A DNA stretch of 64,000 nt, from contig OY727094.1 of assembly GCA_963402885.1 (NCBI GenBank), positions 32,738,501 to 32,802,500 on the forward strand, written 5' to 3'. This document shows, one piece after another, positions 1 through 64,000 of the stretch (positions are counted from its first letter, which is position 1; each line of letters starts with the position of its first letter). This DNA comes from Antedon bifida. Lineage: Eukaryota; Echinodermata; Crinoidea; Comatulida; Antedonidae. The notes beneath the pieces were generated by a model that ran no database searches, was not told the origin of the DNA, and saw nothing but the letters and a program-made list of their open reading frames with translations. The translations under genes and the position numbers were made by a program.

Positions 1-468
1 TGATTTATACATCAAATTTTATTTTTTACGCTTTCTAAGAATCACGTGCGCAAAAACGTGTTTTTGCGCAGTAATTTTTTGAAACGCGCAAATGGCCTAA
101 TTCATGCTCTAAATTGATCAAAACTTAATTTTGAGCGTTCTAAATTTTTAACGCGCGATTTCACGTGCATGACCTTGAAACGCGCAACTTTTTATTTGCT
201 AATATTTTTACCCTTGACATGAAGTTTACGTGTAGTGAATTTCATTAATATGTGATAATGAATTATGGAGATATGATTGATAATGTGATTTCACAAAATG
301 GCGTATAAATGACGTCACGGATGAGTGATCACGCTGGAAAGCTTATTAGGATTAAGTTATATCATTTGAAAGATATTCTGAAATTTTGGTAATCATTGAC
401 ATTAAACTTTTTGAGATATCTGTTACACAAAATAGTGTACAGAAACAATAAAAAGAAAAAAAATAAAA
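1..468 (-). mobile_element. E1: family A Helitron-like unit, partial
   Basis: This is the plus-strand right part of a family A element cut by the window edge. It starts in the CpG-rich internal hairpin region (GCGCAAAAA/TTTTTGCGC near 49-69) and runs to the conserved body end GTTACACAAAATAGTGTACAG and an A-rich tract. The terminal hairpin is absent at the join to E2, so I treat E1 as interrupted by E2. The A-rich remainder at 2231-2243 may also belong to it. No stranded hairpin can be assigned to it with certainty. Confidence 0.75.
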
Positions 469-2230
469 CTAGACATGAAACTCGTCACTTTGACGAGTTT
501 GGTTATCCGCTGCGCAAGTGGTGAAACATGGTCGTTTAACGATGTACCTTTTAACATTAAGGGGATAGGTTGAGGCCAAAAGGAAGCGTTCACGTTGGCA
601 TTATGACCTACAGGCCGGACAAGCAACTGACAAACAAAACCAGAAAATGTAATAGAAATCACATATCTCCTAACAACGATGAACGGCTCTGATATGAGAA
701 AAATATTGTTTGCCTCTCTCTATCCTGTAAAAATAACGTCTTATTTGGCCTGCTACATTATAGAAATAGGTAGGAAATAAACGATTTGAGCTATTCCATT
801 ACAGTCGGTATAAACAGTAAAATCTGTTTACATATTACATACAGTGTAGATTAGGTGAAATTACGGGAGCCGCCATTTATTCCAAATTTTAACATGGCGG
901 CGGCATCAAAATGAAATACAAAGATAGCAATTTCGGAAGGATATTATCTCAGCAACAACATATTAACGTGCAGAAGAAATTTGAATACGTGAAATATTGA
1001 TGCGCGCTCTTTTAAATGTAATGAACTATTACGCAAAAAATGAAAATACGACTTTTTTTAGTTAAGTGGCCATATGATGACGTCACATCATCAGATTGGC
1101 AAAATTTTCACATGATTTCGTATCTACAATCCAATAGCTTCCAGAAAACGTTTTAATCGTGATTATCACATTTTATTCTTACGAGCTATAACAGATTAAA
1201 ATTTACTGTACAGATGAAATTAATGCCACACGTAATTTAAATTTTTAGGCATGATGACGTCAAAAAAATTAAAATATTTTTAACTCATGCGAAAGATAGT
1301 TGATTGACCTAGACAATATCAAAATCGGGGTGAAAATGGAAAACGGATAAGTGGAGATGCGCTCTATTAAATGTGATGAGCTATGACGAAAGATACAAAA
1401 ATCCTAAATTTTATATTCGCGTGGCCATACGATGACGTCACAATGTCCGGTTAGCCATATTGATACATGATCCTATATCTACAACTCATCAACTTCCAGA
1501 ATATGTCATCCACAAAAAGTTGACCGTGCAGTTTAGAAACTACGACTGTTTAAAAAAAGGCATAATTTTGACGAATTTCTGAACTTTTTCATCAAAAACG
1601 CGCGCAAATTGACCAATTCGACGTGCTCGTATGACGTAACCTTAAGCCCAAATTGTTTAAAAGTTGGTAAAATTACTAGAAGAGGCTGGAAAAACATAAA
1701 TCACGCGGAAAATACATGTTTTCAATGCTACGTGCGCACCGCACACGTAAATATTTGCGCACGCGTGGGAATTTTTGACATGCTTAAAATGACATGAAAC
1801 GCGTAGAAAATTGATTAGAAAATAATTTTGCGCATTTTGAAATTTTAAATGCGCGTGCGAGCGTAACTTTGTGTAAAACACACAATTTTTGTTCAACAGA
1901 AAGTTAGCGCATGATATAAATTAAATTTGTGCAAAGTTTCAATTTAAAATGTTATTTGGTTTTTGACCTATGTTAAATACGAGAAAATCGTTAAATCGCG
2001 CGTACGTCACGTTGCGCAATTGTAAACATCATGAAAAGCTTCGCTTGACGACGTTACATAAATGTCAAAATGTTAACCTAGTTCACAAAATGTTATGTTT
2101 GCAAGTTTCAGAGAAAAGCGTTACACAAAAATCATACAGAAAGAAAGAAGAGAAATAAAAAGATGATGTTGATGTTGATGATTTCGTACAATCACAAGAG
2201 GTTATCAGCAACTTCGTTGCGGATAACCAA
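469..2230 (-). mobile_element. E2: family B Helitron-like element, GGTTATC arm type
   Basis: On the plus strand it begins CTAGACATG, followed by the AACTCGTCA/TGACGAGTT hairpin and the subterminal arm GGTTATCCGC. It ends in a terminal hairpin at 2200-2228 with arms GGTTATC/GATAACC around an inner GCAAC-TTC-GTTGC stem. The arm type at both ends agrees. The body holds two diverged copies of a monomer of about 358 bp (starting near 855 and 1213), then the shared right half beginning near CGTGCTCGTATGACG. Positions 711-800 share a segment with the longer B elements E5, E7 and E14, but no LINE fragment is seen. Several short frames inside it (for example 1609-1797) are non-coding shadows. Confidence 0.8.
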
Positions 2231-2243
2231 AAAATAAAAAAAA

Positions 2244-3752
2244 CTAGAATTTAATTCGTCACTTTGACGAATTATAGGTGATCATTTTTATCATTTTACT
2301 GAAATTAATTTTTTTTAAACATGCACGTACGTTAACATACGATCGGAAAATGTTGATGTATGCCATCCTATTATATGCTTATAGTGCTGAGTTGCGCCTA
2401 TATGCCATATACAATATGTACAGTATATACTGTATATCTATATACAGTGTAGCATAGGTGAAATTACGGGACACACATGTTCTAATTTTTTGGCATGATG
2501 ACGTTATCAAACTAAACTTTAAGATGACAATTTCGAAAGATAATTAATTGAGCAAAAAAATATAAGATTTGGAAAAAAATTTGGCACGTAGAAGCGCTGT
2601 GCGCGCTCTTTGAATTGTGTATAACTTTGACGAAAAATATGAAAAAACTACTTTTTCACTTCAACTGGCCATATGTTAACGTCACAACATCCGATAGGCT
2701 TAATTTTTATATGAATTAATATCTACATTTCATCAGCTTTCATAATAAATTATAATCATCAAGGTAACCTTCAATTCTGAAGAGCTGTAAGATATTCAAA
2801 TTTACTGCGAATGTGAAATTACACGGCCTACGTTATTCAAGTTTTTACGCGTGATGACGTCATTAAAATGAAGATAGTGTCAACTCATGATAAAGATAAT
2901 TAATTAAGCAAGCACATACTGAAAGTTGTGCGAAATTCGAGCACACATAACCAAGATGCGCTCTGTTGAATGTGATAATCTACACAAAAAGATAACAAAT
3001 CCTAATTTTTAAATTCAAGTGGCCATTTGATGACGTCAAAACATTTTGTACGTCAAATGTGTACATGAATTCATATCTACAACTCAATGGCTTCCAGAAT
3101 AAGTTAAAAAAATCGGGGGTCATCTTGCATTCTGAAGAATTATTTTCATTTTAAAAAAGACCTATTTTTCACCATTTTCAGAACTTTTGTAAAATTAATG
3201 TGCGCATTTTGTCATTTTTAACGTGCTCGTATAGCGTTATTTTAAGTCGGAACTGACTCAAATTTGGTGAATGTACTAAGGATGGTGAGTAGAATGAGAT
3301 TTGTAAAAAAAATTCATGTTTTTTACGCTTTTTAAGTATCGCGCGCGCAAAAACGCATTTTTGCGCAGTAATTTTTTGAAACACGCAAATGGCCTAATTC
3401 ATGCTCTAAATTGATCAAAACTTAATTTTGAGCGTTTTAAATTTTTAACGCGCGATATCACGCGCATGAACCTACGTGCGCGTGCGTTTTTATTTGCTAA
3501 TATTTTTACCCTTGATCTGAAGTTTACGTGTAGTGAATTTCATTAATATGTGATAATGAATTATGGAGATATGATTGATAATGTGATTTCGCAAAATGGC
3601 GTATAAATGTCGTCACGGATGAGTGATCACGCTGGAAAGCTTATTAGGATTAAGTTATATTATTTGAAAGATATTCTGAAATTTTTGTAATCATTGACAT
3701 TAAACTTTTTGAGATAATTGTTACACAAAATAGTGTACAGAAACAATAAAAA
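2244..3752 (-). mobile_element. E3: family A element, main part (split)
   Basis: This is a good reference copy for family A. The plus-strand left end is CTAGAATT, a 10-bp hairpin TAATTCGTCA (2252-2261) / TGACGAATTA (2265-2274) with loop CTT, then the arm TAGGTGATCATTT (2275-2287). A palindrome ACAGTATATACTGT lies near 2420. Two tandem diverged monomers start near 2455 and 2811. The right half contains a CpG-rich hairpin near 3350 and ends at AGAAACAATAAAAA. The element's own terminal hairpin is missing here and is best matched to the stranded one at 7131-7162, displaced by E4 and E5. In element sense CTAG is the 3' end. Confidence 0.8.
2455..3166 (+). repeat. Internal tandem pair of ~356-bp monomers (shown in E3)
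   Basis: The first monomer starts near 2455 (AGGTGAAATTACGGGAC) and the second near 2811 (GTGAAATTACACGGCC). Shared landmarks in the same order are GATGACGT, AAGATAATTAATT, GATGCGCTCT or GTGCGCGCTCTTT, GTGGCCATTTGATGACGTC, TATCTACA, GGCTTCC or AGCTTTC, and ATTCTGAAGA. Every A element except the deleted E32 has the pair. B elements carry a homologous pair (for example from 855 and 1213). C elements keep only the last few dozen bases. Confidence 0.75.
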
Positions 3753-5062
3753 CTAGATCTTAAACTCGTCACTTGAGGACGAGTTTGGTTATCCGCCCGC
3801 AACAAACGTATCTTGCGCATTCAAGTACTTTTCAATCATGACTTTTCCAAAAAGTAGCCTATTCGAAAATGAAACTCCCTTTCAGTGTAAAAAGCAAATA
3901 AATCCTTTTATTTAATTATTTTCCCGTGACGGGATTCGATCCCGGTACCTCTGATACCAAAGTCGGTTGCACTACACATCGAGCCATATGAGCACCTGCT
4001 GAAGAAAATCCGAAGAACAATTACTCGTTCATTCGGTATGTCGTGAACCCCTCGATGCAAGTTGATTATTACCTATCAAACTAAATCATAATTTTTACTA
4101 TGATGAAATCTTCACACATTTTAAACAGTAACATATTATGAAAGTTCATACTTTCAAGTTTTATATATTAAAATGTGAAGTAAAAAGATAAACGTTATGT
4201 TTATTGTTTTGCTCTTTGAAAATGTTAGTGTTTGTTTGATGATCAAAATTTCAAAAATTATATTTAATATGCACATAATGTAGCCATCAAACACGTTTTA
4301 GCATTCAAGACTATAATAAATCAGACCTATGATTCATACACTGCAAGAAAATAAAATAAAAAATGGGGGTAACCTTGCATTCTGATGAACTGTATCGTTT
4401 TTAAAAGTAGACATATTTTGCAACATTTTCACAATTATTAGACATTTTACGTGCGCAGCCAGCCATGTTTAACGTGCTCGTGGAACGCCATTTCCAGTTG
4501 AATAGTGAATAAAATAACGCAAAATTGTTAACTGAAGTTTGAAAAACACAGTCTATGCAAAATAAAGGCTCATATGCGTTCCCTGCGCCGTGCGCGCGTG
4601 AAAATGTGCGCATCTGGTGGGAATTTTTTAAACGCTTAAAATGACCTGAAACGTGCGCTAATTTAATCAGAAAATGATTTGAAGTATTTTAAAATTTCAA
4701 ACGCCGTTTACGCGCGCACTTTCTAATGTTACAAAATTCGGTAGCGATAAAACAGTTTACAATTGATGTGAAGCAACCGTGGCTGAAAATTTCGTTAAAA
4801 AATATTTATTTGTTTCCAAGTTATGATCAATTTAAGAATTTCAGAAATTCGCGCGTAACTTACGCTACGTGGCTCTGACAGCGTCCAAAAGCTTCGCAGT
4901 ACAACTTCAGTTAAATGTCTAAATGTTTACAAAGTTACAACATGTTATGTTAACACGTTGCAGAGAAAAGCTGAACACAACAAGTGGCGGAAATATGGAA
5001 GAATAATAAAAAAAAGAAACACTACAATTCCAAGGGCTTATCCGCTTGAGGCGGATAACCAA
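3753..5062 (-). mobile_element. E4: family C Helitron-like element
   Basis: This is the reference copy for family C. The left end is CTAGATCTT, with a hairpin AACTCGTC (3763-3770) / GACGAGTT (3778-3785) and the arm GGTTATCCGC (3787-3796). A tRNA-like segment follows at 3923-3995. The middle (about 4000-4340) is not shared with A or B. The right half, from about 4360 (GGGGGTAACCTTGCATTCTGA), is clearly homologous to the right halves of A and B. It ends in a terminal hairpin at 5035-5060 (TTATCCGC/GCGGATAA, loop TTGAG, then CC) plus AA. It appears inserted in E3, and E5 abuts it directly. Confidence 0.8.
3923..3995 (-). other. tRNA-like segment in E4 (possible pol III internal promoter)
   Basis: Read on the minus strand, which is also the element's sense strand, these 73 nt resemble a tRNA. 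There is a box A-like TGGCTCGATGTG, a CTTTGGT run where an anticodon loop would lie, and a T-arm CGGG-ATCGAAT-CCCG that matches box B except for one base. Box spacing is about 44 nt, as in real tRNA genes. The acceptor ends do not pair, so this is not a functional tRNA. It looks like a tRNA-derived or SINE-like promoter piece. A TTTTT run lies about 26 nt beyond its 3' end. Confidence 0.55.
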
Positions 5063-7081
5063 CTAGACATGTAACTCGTCACTTTGACGAGTTTGGTTTT
5101 CCGCCGCGCAAGTGGTGCAACATGAACGTGTAACGACGTACCTTTTAACATTAAGGGATGGTCGCAAATTCGCCACCTCGACTTCTCTTTTTGAGGAATG
5201 TATTAAGATAGGCACATTTCTTGTCATGTCACGGATATCTGTAAAAGAGCTAATAAGAAACTAGGAATGATTTATAGATCTTTTAAATTCTTGAATAAAG
5301 ATGTATTTTTAAATGTCATTAATTATTAAAATTCGACTTTTTCCATTTAACTGGCCATTTGATGACGTCAAAACATTCGATTGACAACATCTTCACATGA
5401 TTTCGTATCTAAAATCCAATAGCTTCCAGAAAACGTTTTAATCGTGATTATACAATGTTATTCTTACGAGCTACAACAGATTAAACTTTACTGTAAAGGT
5501 GAAATTAATGAAACCAGCATTATGATTGCCAAATTCGACCCTTTCACGCCCTCTATCCTGTAAAAATAACGTCTTATTTGGCCTGCTACATTATACAAAT
5601 AGGTAGGAAATAAACAATTTGGGCTATTCCATTGCTGAATTTTATTATTTAAATTCATATATAGTATACACAGTATAATCTGTATCCATATCACATACAG
5701 TGTAGAATAGATGAAATTACGGGACCCGATATTTATTGCAATTTTTAACATGTTGACGGTTTTAAAATGAAACGCGAAGGTAGCATTTCCGAAAGGAAAT
5801 TATCTCAGCAACAACGTATTAGCGTGTAGAAGAAATTTGAATACGTGAAATATTGATGCGCGCTCTTTTAAATGTAATGAATTATGACGCAAAAGATGAA
5901 AATACGACCTTTTTTGTTTAACTGGCCATATGATGACGTCACAACATCCGATTGGCAACATTTTTACATAGTTTCGTATCTACAATCCAATAGCTTCCAG
6001 AAAAAGTTTTAATCGTGATTATCACATTTTATTCTTACGAGCTATAACAGATTAAAATTTACTGTAAAGAGTAAATTAATGCCACACGTGATTTAAATTT
6101 TTAGGCATGATGACGTCAAAAAAATTAAAAAATTTTTAACTCCTGCGAAAGAAAGTTGATTGACCTAGACAATATCAAAATTTGGGTGAAAATGGAAAAC
6201 GGATAAGTGGAGATGCGCTCTATTAAATGTGATGAGCTATGACGAAAGATACAAAAATCCTAAATTTTATATTAGCGTGGCCATACGATGACGTCACAAT
6301 GTCCGGTTAGCCATATTAATACATGATCCGATATCTACAACTCATTAACTTCCAGAAAATGTCATCCACAAAAAGTTGACCATGCAGTTTAGAAATTACG
6401 ACTGTTTAAAAAAAGGCATATTTTTAACGAATTTTTTAACCTTTTCATAAAAAACGCGCGCAAATTGTCCAATTCGACGTGCTCGTATGACGTATCTTTA
6501 AGTCGAAATTGTTTAAAATTTGGTAAAATTACTAGAAAAGGCTGGAAAAACATAAATCACGCGAAAAAAATACGTTTTCAATGCTACGTGCGCACCGCAC
6601 ACGTAAAAATGTGCGCACGCGTGGGAATGTTTGACATGCTTAAAACGACATGAAACGCGTAGAAAGTTGATTATAAATTAAATTTGCGCATTTTGAAATT
6701 TTAAATGCGCGTGCGCGCGTAACTTTGTGTAAAACACGCAATTTTTTTCCCACAGAAAGTTAGCGCATAATATAAATTAAACTTTTGCAAAGTTTCAAGT
6801 TGAAATGTTATTTGGTTGTCGAGCTATGTTAAATACGAGAAAATCGTTAAATCGCGCGTACGTCACGTTGCGCAATTGTAAGCATCATGAAAAGCTTCGC
6901 TTGACGACGTTACATAAATGTCAAAATGTCAACATAGTTAAAAAAATGTTATGTTTGCAAGTTTTAGAGAAAAGCGTTACACAAAAATCATACAGAAAGA
7001 AAGAAGATGAAAAAAAAGATGATGATGATGATTTCGTACAATCACAAGAGGTTTTCCTGCAACTTCGTTGCGGAAAACCAA
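5063..7081 (-). mobile_element. E5: family B element, long LINE-carrying subtype, GGTTTTCC arm
   Basis: The left hairpin AACTCGTCA (5073-5081) / TGACGAGTT (5085-5093) is followed by the arm GGTTTTCCGC (5095-5104). This subtype is about 400 bp longer than other B elements. It carries an antisense LINE fragment (5171-5329) and an extra piece of the 358-bp monomer (about 5336-5510). The terminal hairpin at 7050-7079 has arms GGTTTTCC/GGAAAACC with a single T bulge and the inner GCAAC-TTC-GTTGC stem. A GAT trinucleotide run precedes it. It is nearly identical to E7 and E14. Frames such as 6805-7137 run through the terminal hairpin and are not credible genes. Confidence 0.8.
5171..5329 (+). pseudogene. 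LINE reverse transcriptase fragment inside E5
   Basis: Plus-strand translation in the frame of 5171 gives HLDFSF, a stop, a short disrupted stretch with a second stop, then HISCHVTDIC, KRANKKLGMIYRSF and FLNKDVFLNV before a stop at 5327-5329. This resembles the region after the palm of non-LTR (CR1/Jockey-like) reverse transcriptases, where the usual pattern is LxFxxHI...KANKxLGxIxRxFxxLxKxVFLxLY. Only about 50 codons survive, with in-frame stops, so it is a dead captured fragment. It sits antisense to its host element and is absent from shorter B elements, where the sequence after AACATTAAGGG differs. Confidence 0.65.
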
Positions 7082-7163
7082 TAAAAAAAAAAATAAAAAA
7101 AATAATAATAAAGATTTTATACAATAACAATAGGTGATCATTTTATTCTAAATGATCACCTAA
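7082..7163 (-). mobile_element. Stranded terminal end of a family A element (assigned to E3)
   Basis: After E5's own end (CCAA) there is an A/T-rich tract, the motif TACAATAACAA, and a perfect 13-bp hairpin at 7131-7162 (TAGGTGATCATTT/AAATGATCACCTA, loop TATTCT) ending CTAA. It has no A-family body directly to its left. The nearest unclosed A body to the left is E3, whose A-rich tract was opened by E4 and E5. E1 is the alternative owner. Confidence 0.65.
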
Positions 7164-8680
7164 CTAGAATTTAATTCGTCACTTTGACGAATTATAGGTG
7201 ATCATTTTTATCATTTTAATGAAATTAAAACTTTTTAAACATGCACGTATGTTAACATACGATCGTTAAAAGGTTGATGTATGCCATTCTATGACATGAT
7301 GCATACGCTTATAGTACTGAGTTGTGCATGCCATATACAATATGTACAGTATATACTGTATATCTATATACAGTGTAGCATAGGTGAAATTACGGGACAC
7401 ACATCATGTTCTAATTTTTTGGTATGATGGAATTATCAAAATAAACTCAAAGATGACAATTTCGAAAGATAATGAATTGAGCAAATAAATATAAGAATTG
7501 CAAGAGAATCTGGCATGTAGAAGCGCTGTGCGCGCTGTTTGAAATTTGTATAACTTTGACGAAAAAGATGAAAAAACTACTTTTTAACTTCATCTGGCCA
7601 TATGTTAACGTCACAACATCCGATAGGCTTAGTTTTTATATGAATTCATATCTACATTTCATCAGCTTTCATAATAAATTATAATCATCAAGGTAACCTT
7701 CAATTCTGAAGAGCTGTAAGATATTCAAATTTACGGCAAAGGTGAAATTACACGACCTACGTTATTCAAGTTTTTACGCGTGATGACGTCATCAAAATGA
7801 AAACACTGACAACTTATGATAAAGATAAATAATTAAGCAAGCACACACTGAAATTTGTGCGAAAATCGAGCTCAAATAGCGGAGATGCGCTCTATTGAAT
7901 GTGATAACCTACACAAAACGGAAAAAAATCCTAATTTTTTAATTCAAGTGGCCATTTGATGACGTAATACCATTTTGTACGTCTAATGTGTATATACATT
8001 TATATCTACAACTCAATGGCTTCCCGAATAAGTTAAAAAACTTAGGGGTCATCGTGCATTCTGAAGAATTATTTTCATTTTAAAAATGCCTTATTTTTCA
8101 TCATTTTCAGCACTTTAATGCAATTAATGTGCGCATTTTGTCATTTTTAACATGCTCGTATAGCGTTATTTTAAGTCGGAACGGACTCAAATTTGGTGAA
8201 TGTACTAAGGATGGTGAGTAGAATGCGATTTCTACAAAAAATTCGTATTTTTACGCTTTTTAAGAATTGCGCGCGCAAAAACGCATTTTTGCGCAGTAAT
8301 TTTTTGAAACACGCAAATAGCCTAATTCATGCTCTAAATTGATCAAAACTTAATTTTGAGCTTTTTAAATTTTTTACGCGCGATTTCACGCGTATGACCC
8401 TACGTGCGCGTGCCTTTTATTGGTTAATATATTTACCTTTTACCTGAAGTTTACGTATTGTGAATTTTATTGATATGTGATAAAGAGTTATGGCGATATG
8501 ATTGATAATGTGATTTAACAAAATGGCGTATAAATGACGTCACGGTTGAGTGATCACGCTGAAAAGCTTATTAGGATTAAGTTACAGTATTTGAAAGATA
8601 TTGTGAAAATTTTGTCATCTTCAACATTCAACTTTTTGAGATAATTGTTACACAAAATCTGTACAGAGAGAAATAAAGAA
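7164..8680 (-). mobile_element. E6: family A element, main part (split by E7 and E8)
   Basis: This is a family A body ending AGAAATAAAGAA directly before E7. From 7456 onward it matches 23321-24545 closely at a constant offset of 15,865. There the same tract continues uninterrupted into AATAAAGATTTCATAC and the A hairpin. That second copy is the empty site for the E7 insertion. Confidence 0.85.
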
Positions 8681-10632
8681 CTAGACATGTAACTCGTCAC
8701 TTTGACGAGTTTGGTTTTCCGCCGCGCAAGTGGTGCAACATGAACGTGTAACGACGTACCTTTTAACATTAAGGGATGGTCGCAAATTCGCCACCTCGAC
8801 TTCTCTTTTTGAGGAATGTATTAAGATAGGCACATTTCTTGTCATGTCACGGATATCTGTAAAAGAGCTAATAAGAAACTAGGAATGATTTATAGATCTT
8901 TTAAATTCTTGAATAAAGATGTATTTTTAAATGTCATTAATTATTAAAATTCGACTTTTTCCATTTAACTGGCCATTTGATGACGTCAAAACATTCGATT
9001 GACAACATCTTCACATGATTTCGTATCTAAAATCCAATAGCTTCCAGAAAACGTTTTAATCGTGATTATACAATGTTATTCTTACGAGCTACAACAGATT
9101 AAACTTTACTGTAAAGGTGAAATTAATGAAACCAGCATTATGATTGCCAAATTCGACCCTTTCACGCCCTCTATCCTGTAAAAATAACGTCTTATTTGGC
9201 CTGCTACATTATACAAATAGGTAGGAAATAAACAATTTGGGCTATTCCATTGCTGAATTTTATTATTTAAATTCATATATAGTATACACAGTATAATCTG
9301 TATCCATATCACATACAGTGTAGAATAGATGAAATTACGGGACCCGATATTTATTGCAATTTTTAACATGTTGACGGTTTTAAAATGAAACGCGAAGGTA
9401 GCATTTCCGAAAGGAAATTATCTCAGCAACAACGTATTAGCGTGTAGAAGAAATTTGAATACGTGAAATATTGATGCGCGCTCTTTTAAATGTAATGAAT
9501 TATGACGCAAAAGATGAAAATACGACCTTTTTTGTTTAACTGGCCATATGATGACGTCACAACATCCGATTGGCAACATTTTTACATAGTTTCGTATCTA
9601 CAATCCAATAGCTTCCAGAAAAAGTTTTAATCGTGATTATCACATTTTATTCTTACGAGCTATAACAGATTAAAATTTACTGTAAAGAGTAAATTAATGC
9701 CACACGTGATTTAAATTTTTAGGCATGATGACGTCAAAAAAATTAAAAAATTTTTAACTCCTGCGAAAGAAAGTTGATTGACCTAGACAATATCAAAATT
9801 TGGGTGAAAATGGAAAACGGATAAGTGGAGATGCGCTCTATTAAATGTGATGAGCTATGACGAAAGATACAAAAATCCTAAATTTTATATTAGCGTGGCC
9901 ATACGATGACGTCACAATGTCCGGTTAGCCATATTAATACATGATCCGATATCTACAACTCATTAACTTCCAGAAAATGTCATCCACAAAAAGTTGACCA
10001 TGCAGTTTAGAAATTACGACTGTTTAAAAAAAGGCATATTTTTAACGAATTTTTTAACCTTTTCATAAAAAACGCGCGCAAATTGTCCAATTCGACGTGC
10101 TCGTATGACGTATCTTTAAGTCGAAATTGTTTAAAATTTGGTAAAATTACTAGAAAAGGCTGGAAAAACATAAATCACGCGAAAAAAATACGTTTTCAAT
10201 GCTACGTGCGCACCGCACACGTAAAAATGTGCGCACGCGTGGGAATGTTTGACATGCTTAAAACGACATGAAACGCGTAGAAAGTTGATTATAAATTAAA
10301 TTTGCGCATTTTGAAATTTTAAATGCGCGTGCGCGCGTAACTTTGTGTAAAACACGCAATTTTTTTCCCACAGAAAGTTAGCGCATAATATAAATTAAAC
10401 TTTTGCAAAGTTTCAAGTTGAAATGTTATTTGGTTGTCGAGCTATGTTAAATACGAGAAAATCGTTAAATCGCGCGTACGTCACGTTGCGCAATTGTAAG
10501 CATCATGAAAAGCTTCGCTTGACGACGTTACATAAATGTCAAAATGTCAACATAGTTAAAAAAATGTTATGTTTGCAAGTTTTAGAGAAAAGCGTTACAC
10601 AAAAATCATACAGAAAGAAAGAAGATGAAAAA
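8681..10632 (-). mobile_element. E7: family B long subtype, main part (split by E8)
   Basis: The first 1.94 kb match E5 at offset 3,618 and E14 at offset 11,409, including the LINE fragment. The left arm is GGTTTTCCGC. The body stops at GAAGATGAAAAA, where E8 begins. Its terminal hairpin is stranded at 12248-12277 and has the same GGTTTTCC arm. Joining the two sides gives the uninterrupted A-run seen in E5 and E14. Confidence 0.85.
8789..8947 (+). pseudogene. LINE reverse transcriptase fragment inside E7
   Basis: This is the same captured piece as at 5171, shifted by 3,618, with the KRANKKLGMIYRSF stretch at about 8861-8902. It was inherited with the element rather than inserted independently. 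Confidence 0.65.
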
Positions 10633-12212: not shown

Positions 12213-12279
12213 AAAGATGATGATGATGATTTCGTACAATCACAAGAGGTTTTCCTGCAACTTCGTTGCGGAAAACCAA
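12213..12279 (-). mobile_element. Stranded terminal end of E7
   Basis: This holds AAAAGATGATG, the GAT run, TACAATCACAA and the hairpin at 12248-12277 (GGTTTTCC/GGAAAACC), then AA. Removing E8 rejoins GAAGATGAAAAA to AAAGATGATG and restores the 8-A run found in E5 and E14. Confidence 0.85.
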
Positions 12280-12334
12280 TAAAGATTTCATACAATAACA
12301 ATAGGTGATCATTTTATTCTAAATGATCACCTAA
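12280..12334 (-). mobile_element. Stranded terminal end of E6
   Basis: TAAAGATTTCATAC, the motif TACAATAACAA and the 13-bp A hairpin at 12302-12333. Joined to 8680, it reproduces the uninterrupted sequence seen around 24545. Confidence 0.85.
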
Positions 12335-22108: not shown

Positions 22109-22112
22109 AAAA

Positions 22113-43373: not shown

Positions 43374-43435
43374 TGATGATGATGATTTCGTACAATCACA
43401 AGAGGTTTTCCTGCAACTTCGTTGCGGAAAACCAA
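43374..43435 (-). mobile_element. Stranded terminal end of E26
   Basis: Starts TGATGATGATG, with a second B hairpin at 43404-43433. Joining it to E26's AAAAGA restores a five-GAT run as in E5 and E14. The insertion therefore fell between A and T. Confidence 0.83.
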
Positions 43436-43444
43436 AAAACAACA

Positions 43445-46665: not shown

Positions 46666-46721
46666 ATAAAGATTTTGTACAATAACAATAGGTGATCATT
46701 TTATTCTAAATGATCACCTAA
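46666..46721 (-). mobile_element. Stranded terminal end of a family A element (assigned to E25)
   Basis: TAAAGATTTTGTAC, TACAATAACAA and the A hairpin at 46689-46720, with a B element to its left. E25 is the nearest unclosed A body. Confidence 0.65.
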
Positions 46722-49847: not shown

Positions 49848-49854
49848 AAAAAAA

Positions 49855-54174: not shown

Positions 54175-55732
54175 CTAGATCTTAAACTCGTCACTTGAGG
54201 ACGAGTTTGGTTATCCGCCCGCAACAAAACGTATCTTGCGTATTAAAGTACTTCTCAATTATGACTTTTCCAAAAAAGTAGCCTATTCAAAATTAAAACT
54301 GCCCTTTAAGTGTAATAACCAAATAAATCCTTTTTTGATTGTTTTCCCGTGATGGGATTCGAACCCGGTACCTGTGATACCAAAGTCGGTTGCACTACAC
54401 ATCGAGCCATATCAGCACCTGGTGAAGAAAATCCGAAGAAAGAATCCTCGTTCATTCGGTATGTCGTGAACCCCCTCGATGCAAGTTGATTATTACATAT
54501 CGAACTTAAATCATAATGTTTACTATGATGAAATCTTCACACATTTTAAACAGTGACATATTATGAAAGTGCATACTTTCAAGTTTAATATATTAACATG
54601 TAAAGAAAAAAGATAAACGTTATGTTAATTGTTTTACTCTTTGAATATGTTTATGTTTGTTTGATGATAAATATTTCAAAAATTACATTTAATATGCAAA
54701 TAATGTAGCCATCAAACACTTTTTAACATTCAAGACTATTATAAATTAGACCTGTGATTCATACTCTGCAAGAAAATAAAATAAAAAAATGGGGTAACCT
54801 TGCATTCTGATGAACTGTTTCATTTTTAAAAGTAGACATATTTTGGAACATTTTCACAATTTGTTGACGTTTTCGTGCGCAACCTGTCATGTTTAACGTG
54901 CTCGTAGAACGCCATTTCAAGTTGAAAAGTGAATAAAATAACGTAAAATTGTTAACCGAAGATTTAAAAACACAAATCGTGTAAAAGAAATGCTCATACG
55001 TGTTCCCTGCGCCGTGCGCGCGTAAAAATGTGCGCAACAGTGGCAATTTTTTAAACGCTTAAAATGACCTGAATCGTGCTCTAATTTAATCAGAAATTGA
55101 TTTGGAGCATTTTAAAATTTCAAACGCCATTTACGCGCGCACTTTCTAACGTTACAAATTGCGGTAGCGTTAAAAAAGTTAACTTTTGATGTGAAGCAAA
55201 CGTGGCTGAAAATGACGTTAAAAAATATTCGTTTGTTTCGAAGTTATAACCGATTTAAGATTTTCAGAAAATCACGCGTAACTTACGCTACGCGGCTCTG
55301 ACATCGTCAAAAAGCTTGGCTGGACAACTTCAGTAAAATGTCTAAATGCTGAACAAGTTACAACATATTATGTTTACACGTTGAAGAGAAACAGCGTGCA
55401 CAAAATAAGAAGAGTAAAATATTTCAAACGCAATTTACGCGAAAACTTTCTAGTCTCCAAAAATGTGTTAAACATTCCAAAAGTTAGCCATTGATGTGAA
55501 GAAAACGTGGCTGAAAATTTCGTTAAAAAATATTTATCGGTTTCGAAGTTATGACCGATTTAAGATTTTCAGAAAATCGCGCGTGACTTACGCTACGCGG
55601 ATCTGACAGCGTCCAAAAGCTTGGCTGAACATCTTCAGTTAAATGTCTAAATGTTGACCAAGTTACAACATGTTATGTTAACACGTTGAAGAGAAAACGC
55701 GTGCACAAAATCTGAGAAAGAAAGAAGAATAA
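54175..55732 (-). mobile_element. E35: family C element without adjacent hairpin
   Basis: Left end CTAGATCTTAAACTCG. It has the 304-bp internal duplication also seen in E19 (ATTTCAAACG at 55117 and 55421), so the two share a recent ancestor. It ends AGAAAGAAGAATAA before E36. Confidence 0.8.
54346..54418 (-). other. tRNA-like segment in E35, perfect box B
   Basis: Minus-strand 73-nt module with GGGTTCGAATCCC. The 5' part differs slightly from other copies (GTGCTGATATGG). Confidence 0.55.
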
Positions 55733-56987
55733 CTAGAACTTAAACTCGTCACTTGAGGACGAGTTTGGTTATCCGCCCGCAACAAAACGTATCTTGCGCA
55801 TTCAAGTACTTTTCAATCATGACTTTTCCAAAAATTAGCTCATTCAAAATTTAAACTGCTCTTTCAGTTTAATTACCAAATAAATCTTTTTATTTAAATG
55901 TTTTCCCGTGACGGGATTCGATCCCGGTACCTCTGATACCAAAGTCGGTTGCACTACACATCGAGCCATATGAGCACCTGTCGAATAAAATCCAAAGAAA
56001 GATTACTCGTTTATTCGGTATGTCGTGAACCCCCTCGATGCAAGTTGATTATTACATATCAAACTAAATCATAATTTTAACTATAATGAAATCTTCACAA
56101 ATTTTAAACAGTGACATATTACGAAAGTGCATACTTTCAAGTTTTATATATTAACATGTGAAGAAAAAAGATAAACGTTATGTTTATTGTTTTGCTCTTT
56201 GAAAATGTTAGTGTTTGTTTGATGATCAAAATTTCAAAAATTATATTTAATATGCAAATAATGTAGCCATCAAACACGTTTTAGCATTCAACACTATAAT
56301 AAATTAGACATACGATTCATACACTGCAAGAAGATAAAATAAAAAATGGGGGTAACCGTTAATTCTGATAAACTGTTTCATTTTTAAAAGTAGACATATT
56401 TTGCAACATTTTCACAATTTTGTAACGTTTTACGTGCGCAACCAGTCATGTTTAACGTGCTCGTGGAACGCCATTTCAAGTTGAATAGTGAATAAAATAA
56501 CGCAAAATTGTTAACTGAAGTTTGAAAAACACAATCTATGCAAAATAAAGGCTCATACGCGTTCCCTGTGCCGTGCGCGCGTGAAAATGTGCGCATCTGG
56601 TGGGAATTTTTTAAACGCTTAAAATGACCTGAAACGTGCGCTAATTTAATCAGAAAATGATTTTAAGCATTTTAAAATTTCAAACGCCGTTTACGCGCGC
56701 ACTTTCTAATGTTACAAAATTCGGTAGCGATAAAACAGTTTACAATTGATGTGAAGCAACCGTGGCTGAAAATTTCGTTAAAAAATATTTATTTGTTTCA
56801 AAGTTATGATCAATTTAAGAATTTCAGAAATTCGCGCGTAACTTACGCTACGTGGCTCTGACAGCGTCCAAAAGCTTCGCAGTACAACTTCAGTTAAATG
56901 TCTAAATGTTTAGAAAGTTACAACATGTTATGTTAACACGTTGCAGAGAAACAGCGTGCACAAAATCTGAGAAAGAAAGAAGAATAA
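55733..56987 (-). mobile_element. E36: family C element without adjacent hairpin
   Basis: Left end CTAGAACTTAAACTCG. No 304-bp duplication. It ends AGAAAGAAGAATAA before E37. Confidence 0.8.
55905..55977 (-). other. tRNA-like segment in E36
   Basis: Same module as in E4, with GGGATCGAATCCC at the box B position. Confidence 0.55.
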
Positions 56988-58299
56988 CTAGATCTGAACT
57001 CGTCACTTGAGGACGAGTTTGGTTATCCGCCCGCAACAAAACGTATCTTGCGCATTCAAGTACTTTTCAGTTATGGCTTTTCCAAAAAGTAGCCTATTCG
57101 AAATTAAAACTGCCTTTTCAGTGTAACAACCAAATAAATCCTTTTATTAAATTGTTTTCCCGTGACGGGACTCGATCCCGGTACCTCTGATACCAAAGTC
57201 GGTGGCACTACACATCGAGCCATTTGAGCACCTGTCGAATAAAATCCGAAGAAAGCTTCCTCGTTCATTCGGTATGTCGTGAACCACTCGATGCAAATAG
57301 ATTATTACTTATCAAACTAAATCATAATTTTTACTATGATGAAATCTTCACAAATTTTAAACAGTAACATATTATGAAAGTGCATACTTTTAAGTTTTAT
57401 ATATTAACATGTGAAGAAAAAAGATAAACGTTATGTTTATTGTTTTGCTCTTTGAAAATGTTTATGTTTGTTTGATGATAAAAATTTCAAAAATTATTTT
57501 TAATATGCAAATAATGTAGCCTTCAAACACGTTTTAACATTCAACACTATAATAAATCACACCTACGATTCATACACTGCAAGAAAATAAAATAAAAAAT
57601 AGGGGTAACCTTACATTCTGATGAACTGTATCATTTTTAAAAGTAGACATATTTTGCAACATTTTCACAATTTTTTAACGTTTTATGTGCGCAACCAGTC
57701 ATGTTTAACGTGCTCGTAGAACGCCATTTCAAGTTGAATAGTGAATAAAATAACGTAAAATTGTTAACCGAAGATTGAAAAACACAAATCGTGCAAAAGA
57801 AATGCTCATACGTGATTCCTGCGGCGTGCGCGCGTAAAAATGTGCGCACCTGGTGGCAATTTTTCAAACGCTTAAAATGACCTGAATCGTGCTCTAATTT
57901 AATCAGAAATTGATTTGGAGCATTTTAAAATTTCAAACGCCGTTTACGCGCGCACTTTCCAATGTTACAAATTTCGGTAGCGATAAAAAAGTTAGCAATT
58001 GATGTGAAGTAAACGTGGCTGAACATTACGTTGAAAAATATTCATCTGTTTCGAAGTTATGATCAACTTAGGATTTTCAGAAAATCGCGCGTGACTTACG
58101 CTACGCGGCTCTGACATCGTCAAAAAGCTTGGCTGCACATCTTCAGTTAAATGTCTAAATGTTTACCAAGTTACAACATGTAATGTTAACACGTTGCAGA
58201 GAAAAGTTGAACACAAAAAGTGGCGGAAATCGAGAAGAATAATAAAAAAAAAGTAACACTACAATTCCAAGGGCTTATCCGCTTGAGGCGGATAACCAA
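56988..58299 (-). mobile_element. E37: family C element, complete
   Basis: Left end CTAGATCTGAACTCG. The terminal hairpin at 58272-58297 (TTATCCGC/GCGGATAA, loop TTGAG) is followed by AA and then by further stranded ends. It is the innermost of the nest inside E34. Confidence 0.8.
57159..57231 (-). other. tRNA-like segment in E37
   Basis: Same module as in E4, more decayed: GGGATCGAGTCCC at box B and AAATGGCTCG at box A. Confidence 0.5.
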
Positions 58300-58358
58300 T
58301 AAAAAAAAAAAGAAACACGTACAATAACAAAGGTTATCCGCTTGTGGCGGATAACCAA
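58300..58358 (-). mobile_element. Stranded terminal end of a family C element
   Basis: An A-rich tract, GTACAATAACAA and a perfect 10-bp hairpin at 58332-58356 (GGTTATCCGC/GCGGATAACC, loop TTGTG), then AA. It belongs to E36 or E35. Only two C hairpins exist for three C bodies, so one end has been lost. Confidence 0.7.
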
Positions 58359-58413
58359 TAAAGATTTTGTACAATAACAATAGGTGATCATTTTATTCTA
58401 AATGATCACCTAA
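58359..58413 (-). mobile_element. Stranded terminal end of a family A element (assigned to E34)
   Basis: TAAAGATTTTGTAC, TACAATAACAA and the A hairpin at 58381-58412, lying behind C-family ends. E34 is the nearest unclosed A body. Confidence 0.68.
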
Positions 58414-59989
58414 CTAGAATTTAATTCGTCACTTTGACGAATTATAGGTGATCATTTTTATCATTTTACTGAAATTAATTTTTTTTAAACATGCACGTAC
58501 GTTAACATACGATCGGAAAATGTTGATGTATGCCATCCTATTATATGCTTATAGTGCTGAGTTGTGCCTATATGCCATATACAATATGTACAGTATATAC
58601 TGTATATCTATATACAGTGTAGCATAGGTGAAATTACGGGACACACATGTTCTAATTTTTTGGCATGATGACGTTATCAAACTAAACTTTAAGATGACAA
58701 TTTCGAAAGATAATTAATTGAGCAAAAAAATTTAAGATTTGGAAAAAAATTTGGCACGTAGAAGCGCTGTGCGCGCTCTTTGAATTGTGTATAACTTTGA
58801 CGAAAAATATGAAAAAACTACTTTTTCACTTCAACTGGCCATATGTTAACGTCACAACATCCTATAGGCTTAATTTTTATATGAATTAATATCTACATTT
58901 CATCAGCTTTCATAATAAATTATAATCATCAAGGTAACCTTCAATTCTGAAGAGCTGTAAGATATTCAAATTTACTGCGAAGGTGAAATTACACGGCCTA
59001 CGTTATTCAAGTTTTTACGCGTGATGACGTCATTAAAATGAAGATAGTGTCAACTCATGATAAAGATAATTAATTAAGCAAGCACATACTGAAAGTTGTG
59101 CGAAATTCGAGCACACATAACCAAGATGCGCTCTGTTGAATGTGATGATCTACACAAAAAGATAACAAATCCTAATTTTTAAATTCAAGTGGCCATTTGA
59201 TGACGTCAAAACATTTTGTACGTAAAATGTCTACATGAATTCATATCTACAACTCAATGGCTTCCAGAATAAGTTAAAAAAATCGGGGGTCATCTTGCAT
59301 TCTGAGGAATTATTTTCATTTTAAAAAAGACCTATTTTTCACCATTTTCAGAACTTTTGTAAAATTAATGTGCGCATTTTGTCATTTTTAACGTGCTCGT
59401 ATAGCGTTATTTTAAGTCGGAACTGACTCAAATTTGGTGAATGTACTAAGGATGGTGAGTAGAATGAGATTTGTAAAAAAAAATCATATTTTTTACGCTT
59501 TTTAAGTATCGCGCGCGCAAAAACGCATTTTTGCGTAGTATTTTTTTGAAACACGCAAATGGCCTAATTCATGCTCTAAATTGATCAAAACTTAATTTTG
59601 AGCGTTTTAAATTTTTAACGCGCGATATCACGCGCATGAACCTACGTGCGCGTGCGTTTTTATTTGCTAATATTTTTACCCTTGATTTGAAGTTTACGTG
59701 TAGTGAATTTCATTAATATGTGATAATGAATTATGGAGATATGATTGATAATGTGATTTCGCAAAATGGCGTATAAATGTCGTCACGGATGAGTGATCAC
59801 GCTGGAAAGCTTATTAGGATTAAGTTATATTATTTGAAAGATATTCTGAAATTTTTGTAATCATTGACATTAAACTTTTTGAGATAATTGTTACACAAAA
59901 TAGTGTACAGAAACAATAAAAAGAAAAAAAATAATAAAGATTTTATACAATAACAATAGGTGATCATTTTATTCTAAATGATCACCTAA
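58414..59989 (-). mobile_element. E38: family A element, complete ends
   Basis: E3-like subtype with the A hairpin at 59957-59988. An extra TAATAAAAAAA separates it from E39, so the next element did not land exactly at its tip. Confidence 0.8.
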
Positions 59990-60000
59990 TAATAAAAAAA

Positions 60001-61585
60001 CTAGAATTTAATTCGTCACTTTGACGAATTATAGGTGATCATTTTTATCATTTTACTGAAATTAATTTTTTTTAAACATGCACGTACGTTAACATACGAT
60101 CGGAAAATGTTGATGTATGCCATCCTATTATATGCTTATAGTGCTGAGTTGTGCCTATATGCCATATACAATATGTACAGTATATACTGTATATCTATAT
60201 ACAGTGTAGCATAGGTGAAATTACGGGACACACATGTTCTAATTTTTTGGCATGATGACGTTATCAAACTAAACTTTAAGATGACAATTTCGAAAGATAA
60301 TTAATTGAGCAAAAAAATATAAGATTTGGAAAAATATTTGGCACGTAGAAGCGCTGTGCGCGCTCTTTGAATTGTGTATAACTTTGACGAAAAATATGAA
60401 AAAACTACTTTTTCACTTCAACTGGCCATATGTTAACGTCACAACATCCGATAGGCTTAATTTTTATATGAATTAATATCTACATTTCATCAGCTTTCAT
60501 AATAAATTATAATCATCAAGGTAACCTTCAATTCTGAAGAGCTGTAAGATATTCAAATTTACTGCGAAGGTGAAATTACACGGCCTACGTTATTCAAGTT
60601 TTTACGCGTGATGACGTCATTAAAATGAAGATAGTGTCAACTCATGATAAAGATAATTAATTAAGCAAGCACATACTGAAAGTTGTGCGAAATTCGAGCA
60701 CACATAACCAAGATGCGCTCTGTTGAATGTGATAATCTACACAAAAAGATAACAAATCCTAATTTTTAAATTCAAGTGGCCATTTGATGACGTCAAAACA
60801 TTTTGTACGTAAAATGTGTACATGAATTCATATCTACAACTCAATGGCTTCCAGAATAAGTTAAAAAAATCGGGGGTCATCTTGCATTCTGAAGAATTAT
60901 TTTCATTTTAAAAAAGACCTATTTTTCACCATTTTCAGAACTTTTGTAAAATTAATGTGCGCATTTTGTCATTTTTAACGTGCTCGTATAGCGTTATTTT
61001 AAGTCGGAACTGACTCAAATTTGGTGAATGTACTAAGGATGGTGAGTAGAATGAGATTTGTAAAAAAAATTCATGTTTTTTACGCTTTTTAAGTATCGCG
61101 CGCGCAAAAACGCATTTTTGCGCAGTAATTTTTTGAAACACGCAAATGGCCTAATTCATGCTCTAAATTGATCAAAACTTAGTTTTGAGCGTTTTAAATT
61201 TTTAACGCGCGATATCACGCGCATGAACCTACGTGCGCGTGCGTTTTTATTTGCTAATATTTTTACCCTTGATCTGAAGTTTACGTGTAGTGAATTTCAT
61301 TAATATGTGATAATGAATTATGGAGATATGATTGATAATGTGATTTCGCAAAATGGCGTATAAATGTCGTCACGGATGAGTGATCACGCTGGAAAGCTTA
61401 TTAGGATTAAGTTATATTATTTGAAAGATATTCTGAAATTTTTGTAATCATTGACATTAAACTTTTTGAGATAATTGTTACACAAAATAGTGTACAGAAA
61501 CAATAAAAAGAAAAAAAAAAAAAATAATAATAAAGATTTTATACAATAACAATAGGTGATCATTTTATTCTAAATGATCACCTAA
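60001..61585 (-). mobile_element. E39: family A element, complete ends
   Basis: E3-like subtype. Its own hairpin at 61553-61584 is followed at once by a second A hairpin module. Confidence 0.8.
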
Positions 61586-61650
61586 AAAATAATAATAAAG
61601 ATTTTATACAATAACAATAGGTGATCATTTTATTCTAAATGATCACCTAA
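61586..61650 (-). mobile_element. Second A terminal end in tandem
   Basis: AATAATAATAAAG, TACAATAACAA and the hairpin at 61618-61649. It nearly repeats the preceding end. Under the nesting model it is the stranded end of an earlier unclosed A element (E30 is the nearest). A local duplication of E39's end is the alternative. Confidence 0.55.
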
Positions 61651-63170
61651 CTAGAATTTAATTCGTCACTTTGACGAATTATAGGTGATCATTTTTATCA
61701 TTTTACTGAAATTAATTTTTTTTTAAACATGCACGTACGTTAACATACGATCGGAAAATGTTGATGTATGCCATCCTATTATATGCTTATAGTGCTGAGT
61801 TGTGCCTATATGCCATATACAATATGTACAGTATATACTGTATATCTATATACAGTGTAGCATAGGTGAAATTGCGGGACACATGTTCTAATTTTTTGGC
61901 ATGATGACGTTATCAAACTAAACTTTAAGATGACAATTTCGAAAGATAATTAATTGAGCAAATAAATATAAGAATTGGAAAAAAATTTGGCACGTAGAAG
62001 CGCTGTGCGCGCTCTTTGAATTGTGTATAACTTTGACGAAAAATATGAAAAAACTACTTTTTCACTTCAACTGGCCATATGTTAACGTCACAACATCCGA
62101 TAGGCTTAATTTTTATATGAATTAATATCTACATTTCATCAGCTTTCATAATAAATTATAATCATCAAGGTAACCTTCAATTCTGAAGAGCTGTAAGATA
62201 TTCAAATTTACTGCGAAGGTGAAATTACACGGCCTACGTTATTCAAGTTTTTACGCGTGATGACGTCATTAAAATGAAGATAGTGTCAACTCATGATAAA
62301 GATAATTAATTAAGCAAGCACATACTGAAAGTTGTGCGAAATTCGAGCACACATAACCAAGATGCGCTCTGTTGAATGTGATAATCTACACAAAAAGATA
62401 ACAAATCCTAATTTTTAAATTCAAGTGGCCATTTGATGACGTCAAAACATTTTGTACGTAAAATGTGTACATGAATTCATATCTACAACTCAATGGCTTC
62501 CAGAATAAGTTAAAAAAATCGGGGGTCATCTTGCATTCTGAAGAATTATTTTCATTTTAAAAAAGACCTATTTTTCACCATTTTCAGAACTTTTGTAAAA
62601 TAAATGTGCGCATTTTGTCATTTTTAACGTGCTCGTATAGCGTTATTTTAAGTCGGAACTGACTCAAATTTGGTGAATGTACTAAGGATGGTGAGTAGAA
62701 TGAGATTTGTAAAAAAAATTCATATTTTTTACGCTTTTTAAGTATCGCGCGCGCAAAAACGCATTTTTGCGCAGTAATTTTTTGAAACACGCAAATGGCC
62801 TAATTCATGCTCTAAATTGATCAAAACTTAATTTTGAGCGTTTTAAATTTTTAACGCGCGATATCACGCGCATGAACCTACGTGCGCGTGCGTTTTTATT
62901 TGCTAATATTTTTACCCTTGATCTGAAGTTTACGTGTAGTGAATTTCATTAATATGTGATAATGAATTATGGAGATATGATTGATAATGTGATTTCGCAA
63001 AATGGCGTATAAATGTCGTCACGGATGAGTGATCACGCTGGAAAGCTTATTAGGATTAAGTTGTATTATTTGAAAGATATTCTGAAATTTTTGTAATCAT
63101 TGACATTAAACTTTTTGAGATAATTGTTACACAAAATAGTGTACAGAAACAATAAAAAGAAAAAAAATAA
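61651..63170 (-). mobile_element. E40: family A element without adjacent hairpin
   Basis: Near-identical to E30, but its tract is longer (AAAAAGAAAAAAAATAA) before E41. Its terminal end should lie beyond the window if it was split by E41. Confidence 0.78.
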
Positions 63171-64000
63171 CTAGATCTTAAACTCGTCACTTGAGGACGA
63201 GTTTGGTTATCCGCCCGCAACAAACGTATCTTGCGCATTCAAGTACTTTTCAATCATGACTTTTCCAAAAAGTAGCCTATTCGATAATAAAACTCCCTTT
63301 CAGTGTAATAAGCAAACAAATCTTTTTATTTAATTATTTTCCCGTGACGGGATTCGATCCCGGTACCTCTGATACCAAAGTCGGTTGCACTACACATCGA
63401 GCCATATGAGCACCTGCTGAAGAAAATCCGAAGAACAATTACTCGTTCATTCGGTATGTCGTGAACCCCTCGATGCAAGTTGATTATTACCTATCAAACT
63501 AAATCATAATTTTTACTAGGATGAAATCTTCACACATTTGAAACAGTAACATATTATAAAAGTGCATACTTTCAAGTTTTATATATTAACATGTAAAGAA
63601 AAAAGATAAACGTTATGTTTATTGTTTTGCTCTTTGAATATGTTTATGTTTGTTTGATGATAATTATTTCAAAAATTACATTTAATATGCAAATAATGCA
63701 GCCATCAAACACTTTTTAACATTCAAGACTATAATAAATCAGACCTATGATTCATACACTGCAAGAAAATAAAATAAAAAATGGGGGTAACCTTGCATTC
63801 TGATGAACTGTTTCATTTTTAAAATTAGACATATTTTGCAACAATTTCACAATTTGTTGACGTTTTCGTGCGCAACCTGTCATGTTTAACGTGCTCGTAG
63901 AACGCCAATTTAAGTTTTCAGAATGAATAAAACAACGTAAAATTGTTAACCGAAGTTTGAAAAACACAATTTATGTAAAAGAAAAGCTTATACGCGTTCC
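63171..64000 (-). mobile_element. E41: family C element, partial
   Basis: Begins CTAGATCTTAAACTCG, with the arm GGTTATCCGC, and includes a tRNA-like segment. It is cut off by the window edge in the right half. Confidence 0.78.
63341..63413 (-). other. tRNA-like segment in E41
   Basis: Same module as in E4, with GGGATCGAATCCC at the box B position and 73 nt long. Confidence 0.55.

What the first reader, a model, noticed from the sequence alone, without database searches (positions are those of the whole stretch)
1..64000. A 64-kb transposon array organised as nested brackets
All units point the same way and join at CTAG. Some bodies lack a terminal hairpin, while elsewhere two or three hairpins follow one body. 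Treating a body as an opening bracket and a terminal hairpin as a closing one resolves most of the array: E3(E4 E5), E6(E7(E8)), E18(E19), E25(E26(E27) E28 E29), E34(E35/E36(E37)). The closing order always agrees by family. Unresolved are E1, E13/E21, one C end and possibly E30. Insertion of one Helitron in or next to another is known. A whole array that can be read as an insertion history with its own closing marks is, as far as I know, not described.
Basis: partly seen in the sequence, partly recalled or inferred. Interest (0 to 1): 0.9.

Follow-up and report, generated by a model that had tools for sequence, protein, structure and literature searches.

The report
Jumping genes nested inside one another
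This stretch of DNA from an unidentified, probably eukaryotic genome is built almost wholly of small rolling-circle-type jumping elements that kept landing, in one direction, in or beside the T-rich start of earlier copies, so the order of their ends records much of the history of insertion.

Summary
Forty element 3' ends (CTAG) and 35 hairpin ends lie in the window, all one way round. A last-in-first-out parse pairs 35 of 35 hairpin ends with a body of the same family, four atypical 'D' ends being counted as A by my choice (strict top of stack 33 of 35; at most 26 in 20,000 shuffles). Nesting is shown independently: for five insertions the joined host flanks equal an uninterrupted sequence letter for letter, without target-site duplication. 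New copies land in a T-rich pad 55-83 nt inside a host's 5' end, or exactly at a 5' end. E30 is best closed at 61650. E13 and E21 are copies of one event, made by a 10,247-bp tandem duplication whose copies are identical once three later insertions are set aside. Nested Helitrons and multiple termini are in print; a whole array parsed like this I did not see in eight searches. Not a new kind of element, but a striking natural record of self-targeting.

The parts
1..468 (-). E1, A element, cut by window start; host of E2 and probably of E3 onward (open)
469..2230 (-). E2, B element, inserted in the pad of E1
2244..7163 (-). E3, A element, interrupted by E4 and E5 82 nt from its 5' end; tail type T1
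3753..5062 (-). E4, C element inside E3
5063..7081 (-). E5, B element, exact contact with E4; identical over 2,019 bp to E14 and to E7 with E8 left out
7164..12334 (-). E6, A element, interrupted by E7(E8); uninterrupted site preserved in E15
   Evidence: (115 of 115)
8681..12279 (-). E7, B element inside E6, itself interrupted by E8
10633..12212 (-). E8, B element (GGATAACC-type 3' ATIR) inside E7
   Evidence: (127 of 127)
12335..13876 (-). E9, A body with D-type 5' hairpin
13877..15444 (-). E10, intact A element
15445..17019 (-). E11, intact A element (tail T3); empty-site partner of E18
17020..18578 (-). E12, intact A element
18579..20089 (-). E13, A element whose 5' end is not identified in the window; duplicate of E21
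20090..22108 (-). E14, B element inserted in the pad of E13; empty site at the E21/E22 junction
   Evidence: (105 of 105)
22113..24600 (-). E15, chimera of E22-type (to 23320) and E6-type (from 23321) sequence, joined bluntly: junction of the tandem duplication
24601..26142 (-). E16, duplicate of E9 (D-type 5' end)
26143..27710 (-). E17, duplicate of E10
27711..30909 (-). E18, A element interrupted by E19; uninterrupted copy is E11
   Evidence: 118 of 118
29228..30851 (-). E19, C element inside E18
30910..32468 (-). E20, duplicate of E12
32469..33983 (-). E21, duplicate of E13, 5' end not identified in the window
33984..35544 (-). E22, A body with D'-type 5' hairpin, in the pad of E21
35545..37120 (-). 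E23, intact A element
37121..38707 (-). E24, intact A element, reference for the T1 pad
38708..46721 (-). E25, A element with two insertion sites in one pad: E26(E27) at 65 nt and the E28/E29 pair at 56 nt from its 5' end
40221..43435 (-). E26, B element interrupted by E27
   Evidence: 122 of 122
41785..43373 (-). E27, B element inside E26
43445..45023 (-). E28, B element with AGTTATCCGC/GCGGATAACT ATIR pair, exact contact with E29
   Evidence: end 45023; searches used 45020
45024..46665 (-). E29, B element
46722..61650 (-). E30, A element; best closed by the 5' end at 61607-61650 (tail T1), with three insertion sites in its pad
48234..49847 (-). E31, B element in the pad of E30
49855..51095 (-). 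E32, shortened A body with D-type 5' end
51096..52654 (-). E33, intact A element
52655..58413 (-). E34, A element interrupted by a run of C elements
54175..55732 (-). E35, C body without an assigned 5' end
55733..58358 (-). E36, C element interrupted by E37; the 5' end at 58358 is divergent, assignment to E36 or E35 unsure
56988..58299 (-). E37, C element
58414..59989 (-). E38, intact A element
60001..61585 (-). E39, intact A element inside the pad of E30
61651..63170 (-). E40, A element, open at window end
63171..64000 (-). E41, C element, cut by window end, in the pad of E40
7456..35191 (.). tandem duplication of a 10,247-bp unit (7456-8680 + 12280-20089 + 22109-23320 versus 23321-29227 + 30852-35191), 0 mismatches and 0 gaps once E7(E8), E14 and E19 are left out

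Best explanation
The window is an array of non-autonomous transposons with Helitron2/HINE-type ends, lying on the minus strand: 5'-TT, a hairpin holding the 5' inverted repeat, a T-rich pad about 55-85 nt inside the 5' end, a non-coding body (whole elements about 1.2-2.0 kb), then the matching 3' inverted repeat, a 3' hairpin and CTAG-3'. Copies insert without target-site duplication between A or T and T. The element's own pad and its own 5' TT offer such targets, so new copies land in the pad of, or exactly in front of the 5' end of, older copies, in the orientation set by the T-rich strand. Each insertion brings a new pad, so the array feeds its own growth and becomes nested. A blunt 10.2-kb tandem duplication and insertions present in only one of its copies shaped the present order. 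Shown: ends, nesting, exact empty sites, no TSD, T after every 3' end, target position, duplication in the sequence as given. Inferred: rolling-circle mechanism, transposase supplied in trans, self-feeding growth, insertion as the source of the exact contacts.
For: Ends and hairpins. 5'/3' inverted repeats complementary at 99 of 100 positions over the 10 parser-paired B elements, including E28 with a change at both ends. Five insertions whose joined flanks equal an uninterrupted sequence over 118, 115, 105, 122 and 127 nt. Base after the 3' CTAG is T in 40 of 40; base before the 5' TT is T in 8 and A in 6 of the 14 insertion blocks whose both flanks are host DNA. 12 distinct measurable insertion sites all lie 55-83 nt from the host 5' end, 3.3-5.2% of host length, where 4.7-7.5% of A positions lie at 50-110 nt. 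21 of 40 junctions are exact contacts with another 5' end and the other 19 are in T-rich tracts of a host (that these are pads was read by eye). Stack parse 35 of 35, strict 33 of 35. Published Helitron2/HINE features.
Against: No transposase in the window (no ORF of 150 aa or more with closed ends, bacterial code); end patterns matched nothing in viral or prokaryote collections, so membership rests on ends alone. The four D-type 5' ends do not match their 3' inverted repeat. One C end is missing and the divergent C end at 58358 is unexplained. E13/E21 stay unclosed. Nesting by family labels alone, without the 26 adjacent pairs, is only modestly better than chance (248 of 20,000). Tail types were assigned by eye; E6 and E18 agree with their own duplicates; E25 and E34 agree only with each other, at 92.5%, and not when only the last 500 columns are compared. 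E3's and E30's pad pieces differ from the E24 pad by small indels in a low-complexity tract.
Confidence: 0.87

Rival explanations
1. Head-to-tail concatemers made by rolling-circle replication past a terminator, as proposed for tandem Helitrons in bats and plants.
For: 21 of 40 junctions are exact head-to-tail contacts; tandem Helitron arrays of this origin are proposed in the literature (passages). Three of 14 tested neighbour pairs are 98-99.7% alike.
Against: Over the 14 A neighbour pairs outside the duplicate copy, mean identity is 90.8% against 91.9% for all 153 A pairs, and 4,446 of 5,000 permutations are at least as high; some exact contacts join different families or subfamilies (E4/E5, E28/E29); pad insertions have exact empty sites.
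Confidence: 0.07
2. The array is mainly the product of segmental duplication and recombination among older elements, with little fresh insertion.
For: A 10,247-bp tandem duplication is present in the sequence given; E15 is a blunt chimera; nearest neighbours change along the bodies.
Against: Duplication cannot make three different precise insertions in otherwise identical copies; E5, E7 and E14 are identical 2,019-bp B copies in three different hosts.
Confidence: 0.04
3. Assembly artefact: two haplotypes or repeat copies placed in tandem (concerns the duplication, not the nesting).
For: Two 10.2-kb copies with no difference other than insertions could be misplaced alleles; no reads were available.
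Against: The junction in E15 is blunt with no overlap, unlike an overlap-based misjoin. Empty sites stay valid even if the copies are alleles.
Confidence: 0.12
4. The insertions home to a sequence or structure of a sister element's 5' end rather than to T-richness as such.
For: Every one of the 40 3' ends lies in a pad or at a 5' end; two A references (E10, E23) have no very A-rich 20-mer (plus strand) at all, and only 28 of 255 A-runs of 4 or more in eleven reference elements lie at 50-110 nt.
Against: In A and B references 115 of 119 20-mers with 15 or more A lie in the pad, and in three C elements most of them lie 35-61 nt from the 5' end, so plain T-preference is enough. Only the array is seen, so insertions elsewhere cannot be counted.
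Confidence: 0.12

Closest known systems
Helitron2 elements (Bao and Jurka, PMC3627910; passages seen)
   Same: 5' inverted repeat 0-2 bp from the 5' end and inside a 5' hairpin, 3' inverted repeat just upstream of a 3' hairpin, compensatory changes between ends, no TSD, insertion at T-rich sites
   Different: 3' inverted repeat 32-34 nt from the 3' end here against about 20-30; no transposase seen here
HINE/DINE-1 (non-autonomous Helentrons; PMC4067079 passages and section 11, PMC7492417 passages)
   Same: non-coding, subterminal inverted repeats, palindrome near the 3' end, microsatellite-like tract, internal repeats, TT or oligo-T target
   Different: interspersed in those reports; here stacked in one 64-kb nested array
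proto-Helentron of Phytophthora infestans (PMC4067079, section 11 read)
   Same: 5' TT, 3' CTAG, no TSD, insertion in front of T
   Different: about 14-kb coding element inserting between A and T; here short non-coding copies inserting between A or T and T
FoHeli of Fusarium oxysporum (PMC5148889; passages) and maize Helitrons (PMC3288121; passages)
   Same: self-insertion, nested copies, repeated first 31-85 nt giving multiple 5' termini; multiple termini from nested copies
   Different: in the passages seen, single cases or inferred paths; here many levels with letter-exact internal empty sites

Membership tests
Helitron2 / HINE-type rolling-circle transposon | 5' inverted repeat within 0-2 bp of the 5' end and part of a 5' hairpin | tested here: met
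   met for A, B and C ends, not by the four D-type ends
Helitron2 / HINE-type rolling-circle transposon | matching 3' inverted repeat directly upstream of a 3' hairpin | tested here: met
   distance to the end 32-34 nt
Helitron2 / HINE-type rolling-circle transposon | no target-site duplication, precise insertion | tested here: met
   five empty sites
Helitron2 / HINE-type rolling-circle transposon | insertion at TT or T-rich target | tested here: met
   T after 40 of 40 3' ends; before the 5' end T in 8 and A in 6 of 14 blocks, so TT in 8 of 14 and AT in 6
Helitron2 / HINE-type rolling-circle transposon | autonomous partner with Rep/helicase protein | not testable with these tools
   no ORF of 150 aa or more in the window; no genome held
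Canonical Helitron (Helitron1) | 5'-TC and a hairpin at the 3' side only, no inverted repeats | tested here: not met
   5'-TT, hairpins at both ends, inverted repeats; only CTAG-3' fits CTRR

The most novel reading that the evidence does not exclude
The pad is an evolved landing site and the elements home to sister copies' 5' ends, so they build large oriented nested arrays as a safe, self-feeding niche; such arrays then work as natural recorders of the order of transposition.
Probability: 0.12. Interest if true: 0.72.

Novelty: new variant of a known kind. Interest (0 to 1): 0.5.

Why it matters
Tandem and nested Helitrons are often explained by terminator bypass or inferred from remnants. 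Here one contig holds filled and empty sites side by side with identical flanks, so precise insertion, target choice and order of events can be read directly. It offers a concrete source for the 'multiple 5' termini' reported in fungi and maize, and makes testable whether such elements choose T-rich DNA in general or the 5' ends of their own kind. Three identical 2,019-bp copies in different hosts point to recent activity.

Tried and rejected
Rolling-circle concatemers as the main source: rejected, neighbours are not more alike than random pairs. Homologous unequal crossover as the source of E15: my first idea, rejected because the junction is blunt and out of register (offset 1208 in E22, 293 in E6, zero overlap); the notebook entry written before that still calls it a crossover. 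E13, E21 and E30 as three copies of one open element: first idea (notebook), kept for E13/E21 only; E30 is 99.73% identical to E40 and closes with a T1 tail. A first table of 13 insertion sites took the end of E28 three bases short; one search gives 12 distinct sites, same range. Host identification by pattern scans in viral contigs and prokaryote genomes: 0 matches. Rfam and tRNA scans: nothing at gathering level; one weak U7 match (E 0.28) spans the junction of two elements and I take it as chance. A fuzzy-regex scan timed out and was replaced by blastn-short. Literature: eight searches of the held open-access library; of the papers cited I saw passages, and section 11 of PMC4067079; the silkworm and Helraiser papers (PMC3789558, PMC5876387; passages) added little. 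Subscription papers were not read.
Full report
What is there. The window is AT-rich and 88% of its 16-mers occur more than once; no ORF of 150 aa or more (closed ends, bacterial code) was found, no tRNA and no Rfam family at gathering level. No genome is held, and three exact end patterns gave 0 matches in viral (two scans) and prokaryote (one scan) collections, so the host is unknown; that it is a eukaryote is inferred from the element type. Of 74 CTAG, 40 are element ends in three families (24 A, 10 B, 6 C), all on one strand; there are 35 hairpin ends (17 A, 10 B, 4 C, 4 D-type). The list was curated by me; D' at 35544 was added by eye and 58358 is a partial match.

Orientation. On the minus strand each A, B or C unit starts with TT and a hairpin that contains an inverted repeat (A AGGTGATCAT, B GGTTTTCCGC or variants, C GGTTATCCGCC) and ends with the complementary repeat, a second hairpin and CTAG. 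That is the Helitron2 layout as described in PMC3627910 (passages); 5'-TT and CTAG-3' are also reported for a proto-Helentron (PMC4067079 section 11). The bracket logic is not affected by the reversal.

Is the nesting real? A last-in-first-out parser pairs 35 of 35 hairpin ends with same-family bodies, D ends counted as A; E35 is skipped, and E1, E13, E21, E40, E41 stay open, of which E1 is cut by the window start and E41 by its end, and E40 is open at the end. Strict matching gives 33 of 35, not reached in 20,000 shuffles of either kind (maximum 26); both misses follow from the one missing C end. With the 26 adjacent pairs removed it is 7 of 9 (248 of 20,000). Direct proof comes from uninterrupted sequences: E19 in E18 (reference E11), E7(E8) in E6 (E15), E14 in E13 (E21/E22 junction), E27 in E26 and E8 in E7 (both E5) leave flanks that join to the reference over 118, 115, 105, 122 and 127 nt without a difference and without target-site duplication. 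For the E3, E25, E30 and E34 pads there is only a similar or no reference, and the E3 and E30 joins differ from the E24 pad by small indels in a low-complexity tract. For the 10 B elements the 5' and 3' repeats of parser-paired ends are complementary at 99 of 100 positions, reached in 44 of 20,000 permutations; most of these are adjacent pairs, and only E7/E8 tests the order of nesting. Tail types, which I assigned by eye, agree with the closest bodies for all six nested A hosts (E3, E6, E18, E25, E30, E34). Limits: E6 and E18 agree with their own duplicates, E25 and E34 only with each other (92.5%; not so on the last 500 columns), and T1 and T2g bodies differ by only about 1%.

Where do they land? 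Twelve distinct sites could be measured; they lie 55-83 nt from the host 5' end, 3.3-5.2% of host length. Other pad insertions could not be measured because their host's 5' end is missing. In eleven reference elements 4.7-7.5% of A positions (plus strand) lie at 50-110 nt, and 28 of 255 A-runs of 4 or more. But 115 of 119 20-mers with 15 or more A in ten A and B references lie at 45-115 nt (two A references have none), and in three C elements most lie at 35-61 nt. T-preference, reported for Helentrons, therefore explains the choice without special homing. The base after the 3' end is T in 40 of 40; before the 5' TT it is T in 8 and A in 6 of 14 blocks. 21 of 40 junctions are exact contacts with a neighbour's 5' end. 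A neighbours are not more alike than random A pairs (14 pairs, the 5 pairs touching the duplicate copy left out), which argues against concatemers as the main source.

History. Leaving out E7(E8), E14 and E19, two segments of 10,247 bp are identical, 0 mismatches and 0 gaps. Their junction lies in E15, where E22-type sequence meets E6-type sequence bluntly and out of register. So E13 and E21 are one event, and E7, E8, E14 and E19 are on one copy only. E5, E14 and E7 (E8 left out) are identical over 2,019 bp. Either the duplication and these insertions are very recent, or the copies are alleles placed in tandem by assembly; I cannot tell without reads. E30 is closed at 61650, 14.9 kb away, by last-in-first-out order and tail type; E1, E13 or E21 as owner of that end is not excluded.

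What is known. PMC3288121 (maize; passages) says that Helitrons insert near or inside others and that nesting makes multiple termini. PMC5148889 (Fusarium; passages) reports self-insertion and repeated first 31-85 nt. PMC4067079 (passages and section 11) gives T-rich targets and cites tandem arrays. In eight searches I saw no report of a whole array parsed as nested insertions; that is absence from listings and passages only.

Verdict. A real, well-supported nested array of elements of a known type, with strong internal evidence that they target their own 5' ends or pads. Family membership rests on the ends only.

Noticed in passing
13844-13876, 26110-26142, 51063-51095; variant ending 35544: D-type 5' hairpins: A bodies ending in a hairpin unrelated to their own 3' inverted repeat, in all four cases in exact contact with the next element; perhaps an end replacement.
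   Followed up: partly
5063-7081, 8681-12279, 20090-22108: Three B copies identical over 2,019 bp in three different hosts: recent activity.
   Followed up: yes
58300-58358: A divergent C-type 5' end whose flanking sequence by eye resembles A tails; it does not match the other three C ends.
   Followed up: no
about 3925-3995 in E4: A stretch that by eye (recalled motif) resembles a tRNA-derived sequence on the minus strand; ARAGORN and Rfam did not call it.
   Followed up: partly
A bodies, e.g. 37121-38707: Internal copies 355 bp apart (72% alike), and A and B bodies share 69% identity over 886 aligned positions: satellite-like central repeats as in HINEs.
   Followed up: partly
55732/55733 and 56987/56988: Two C elements interrupted at the same place of the pad: an insertion hot spot or a duplicated event.
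   Followed up: no
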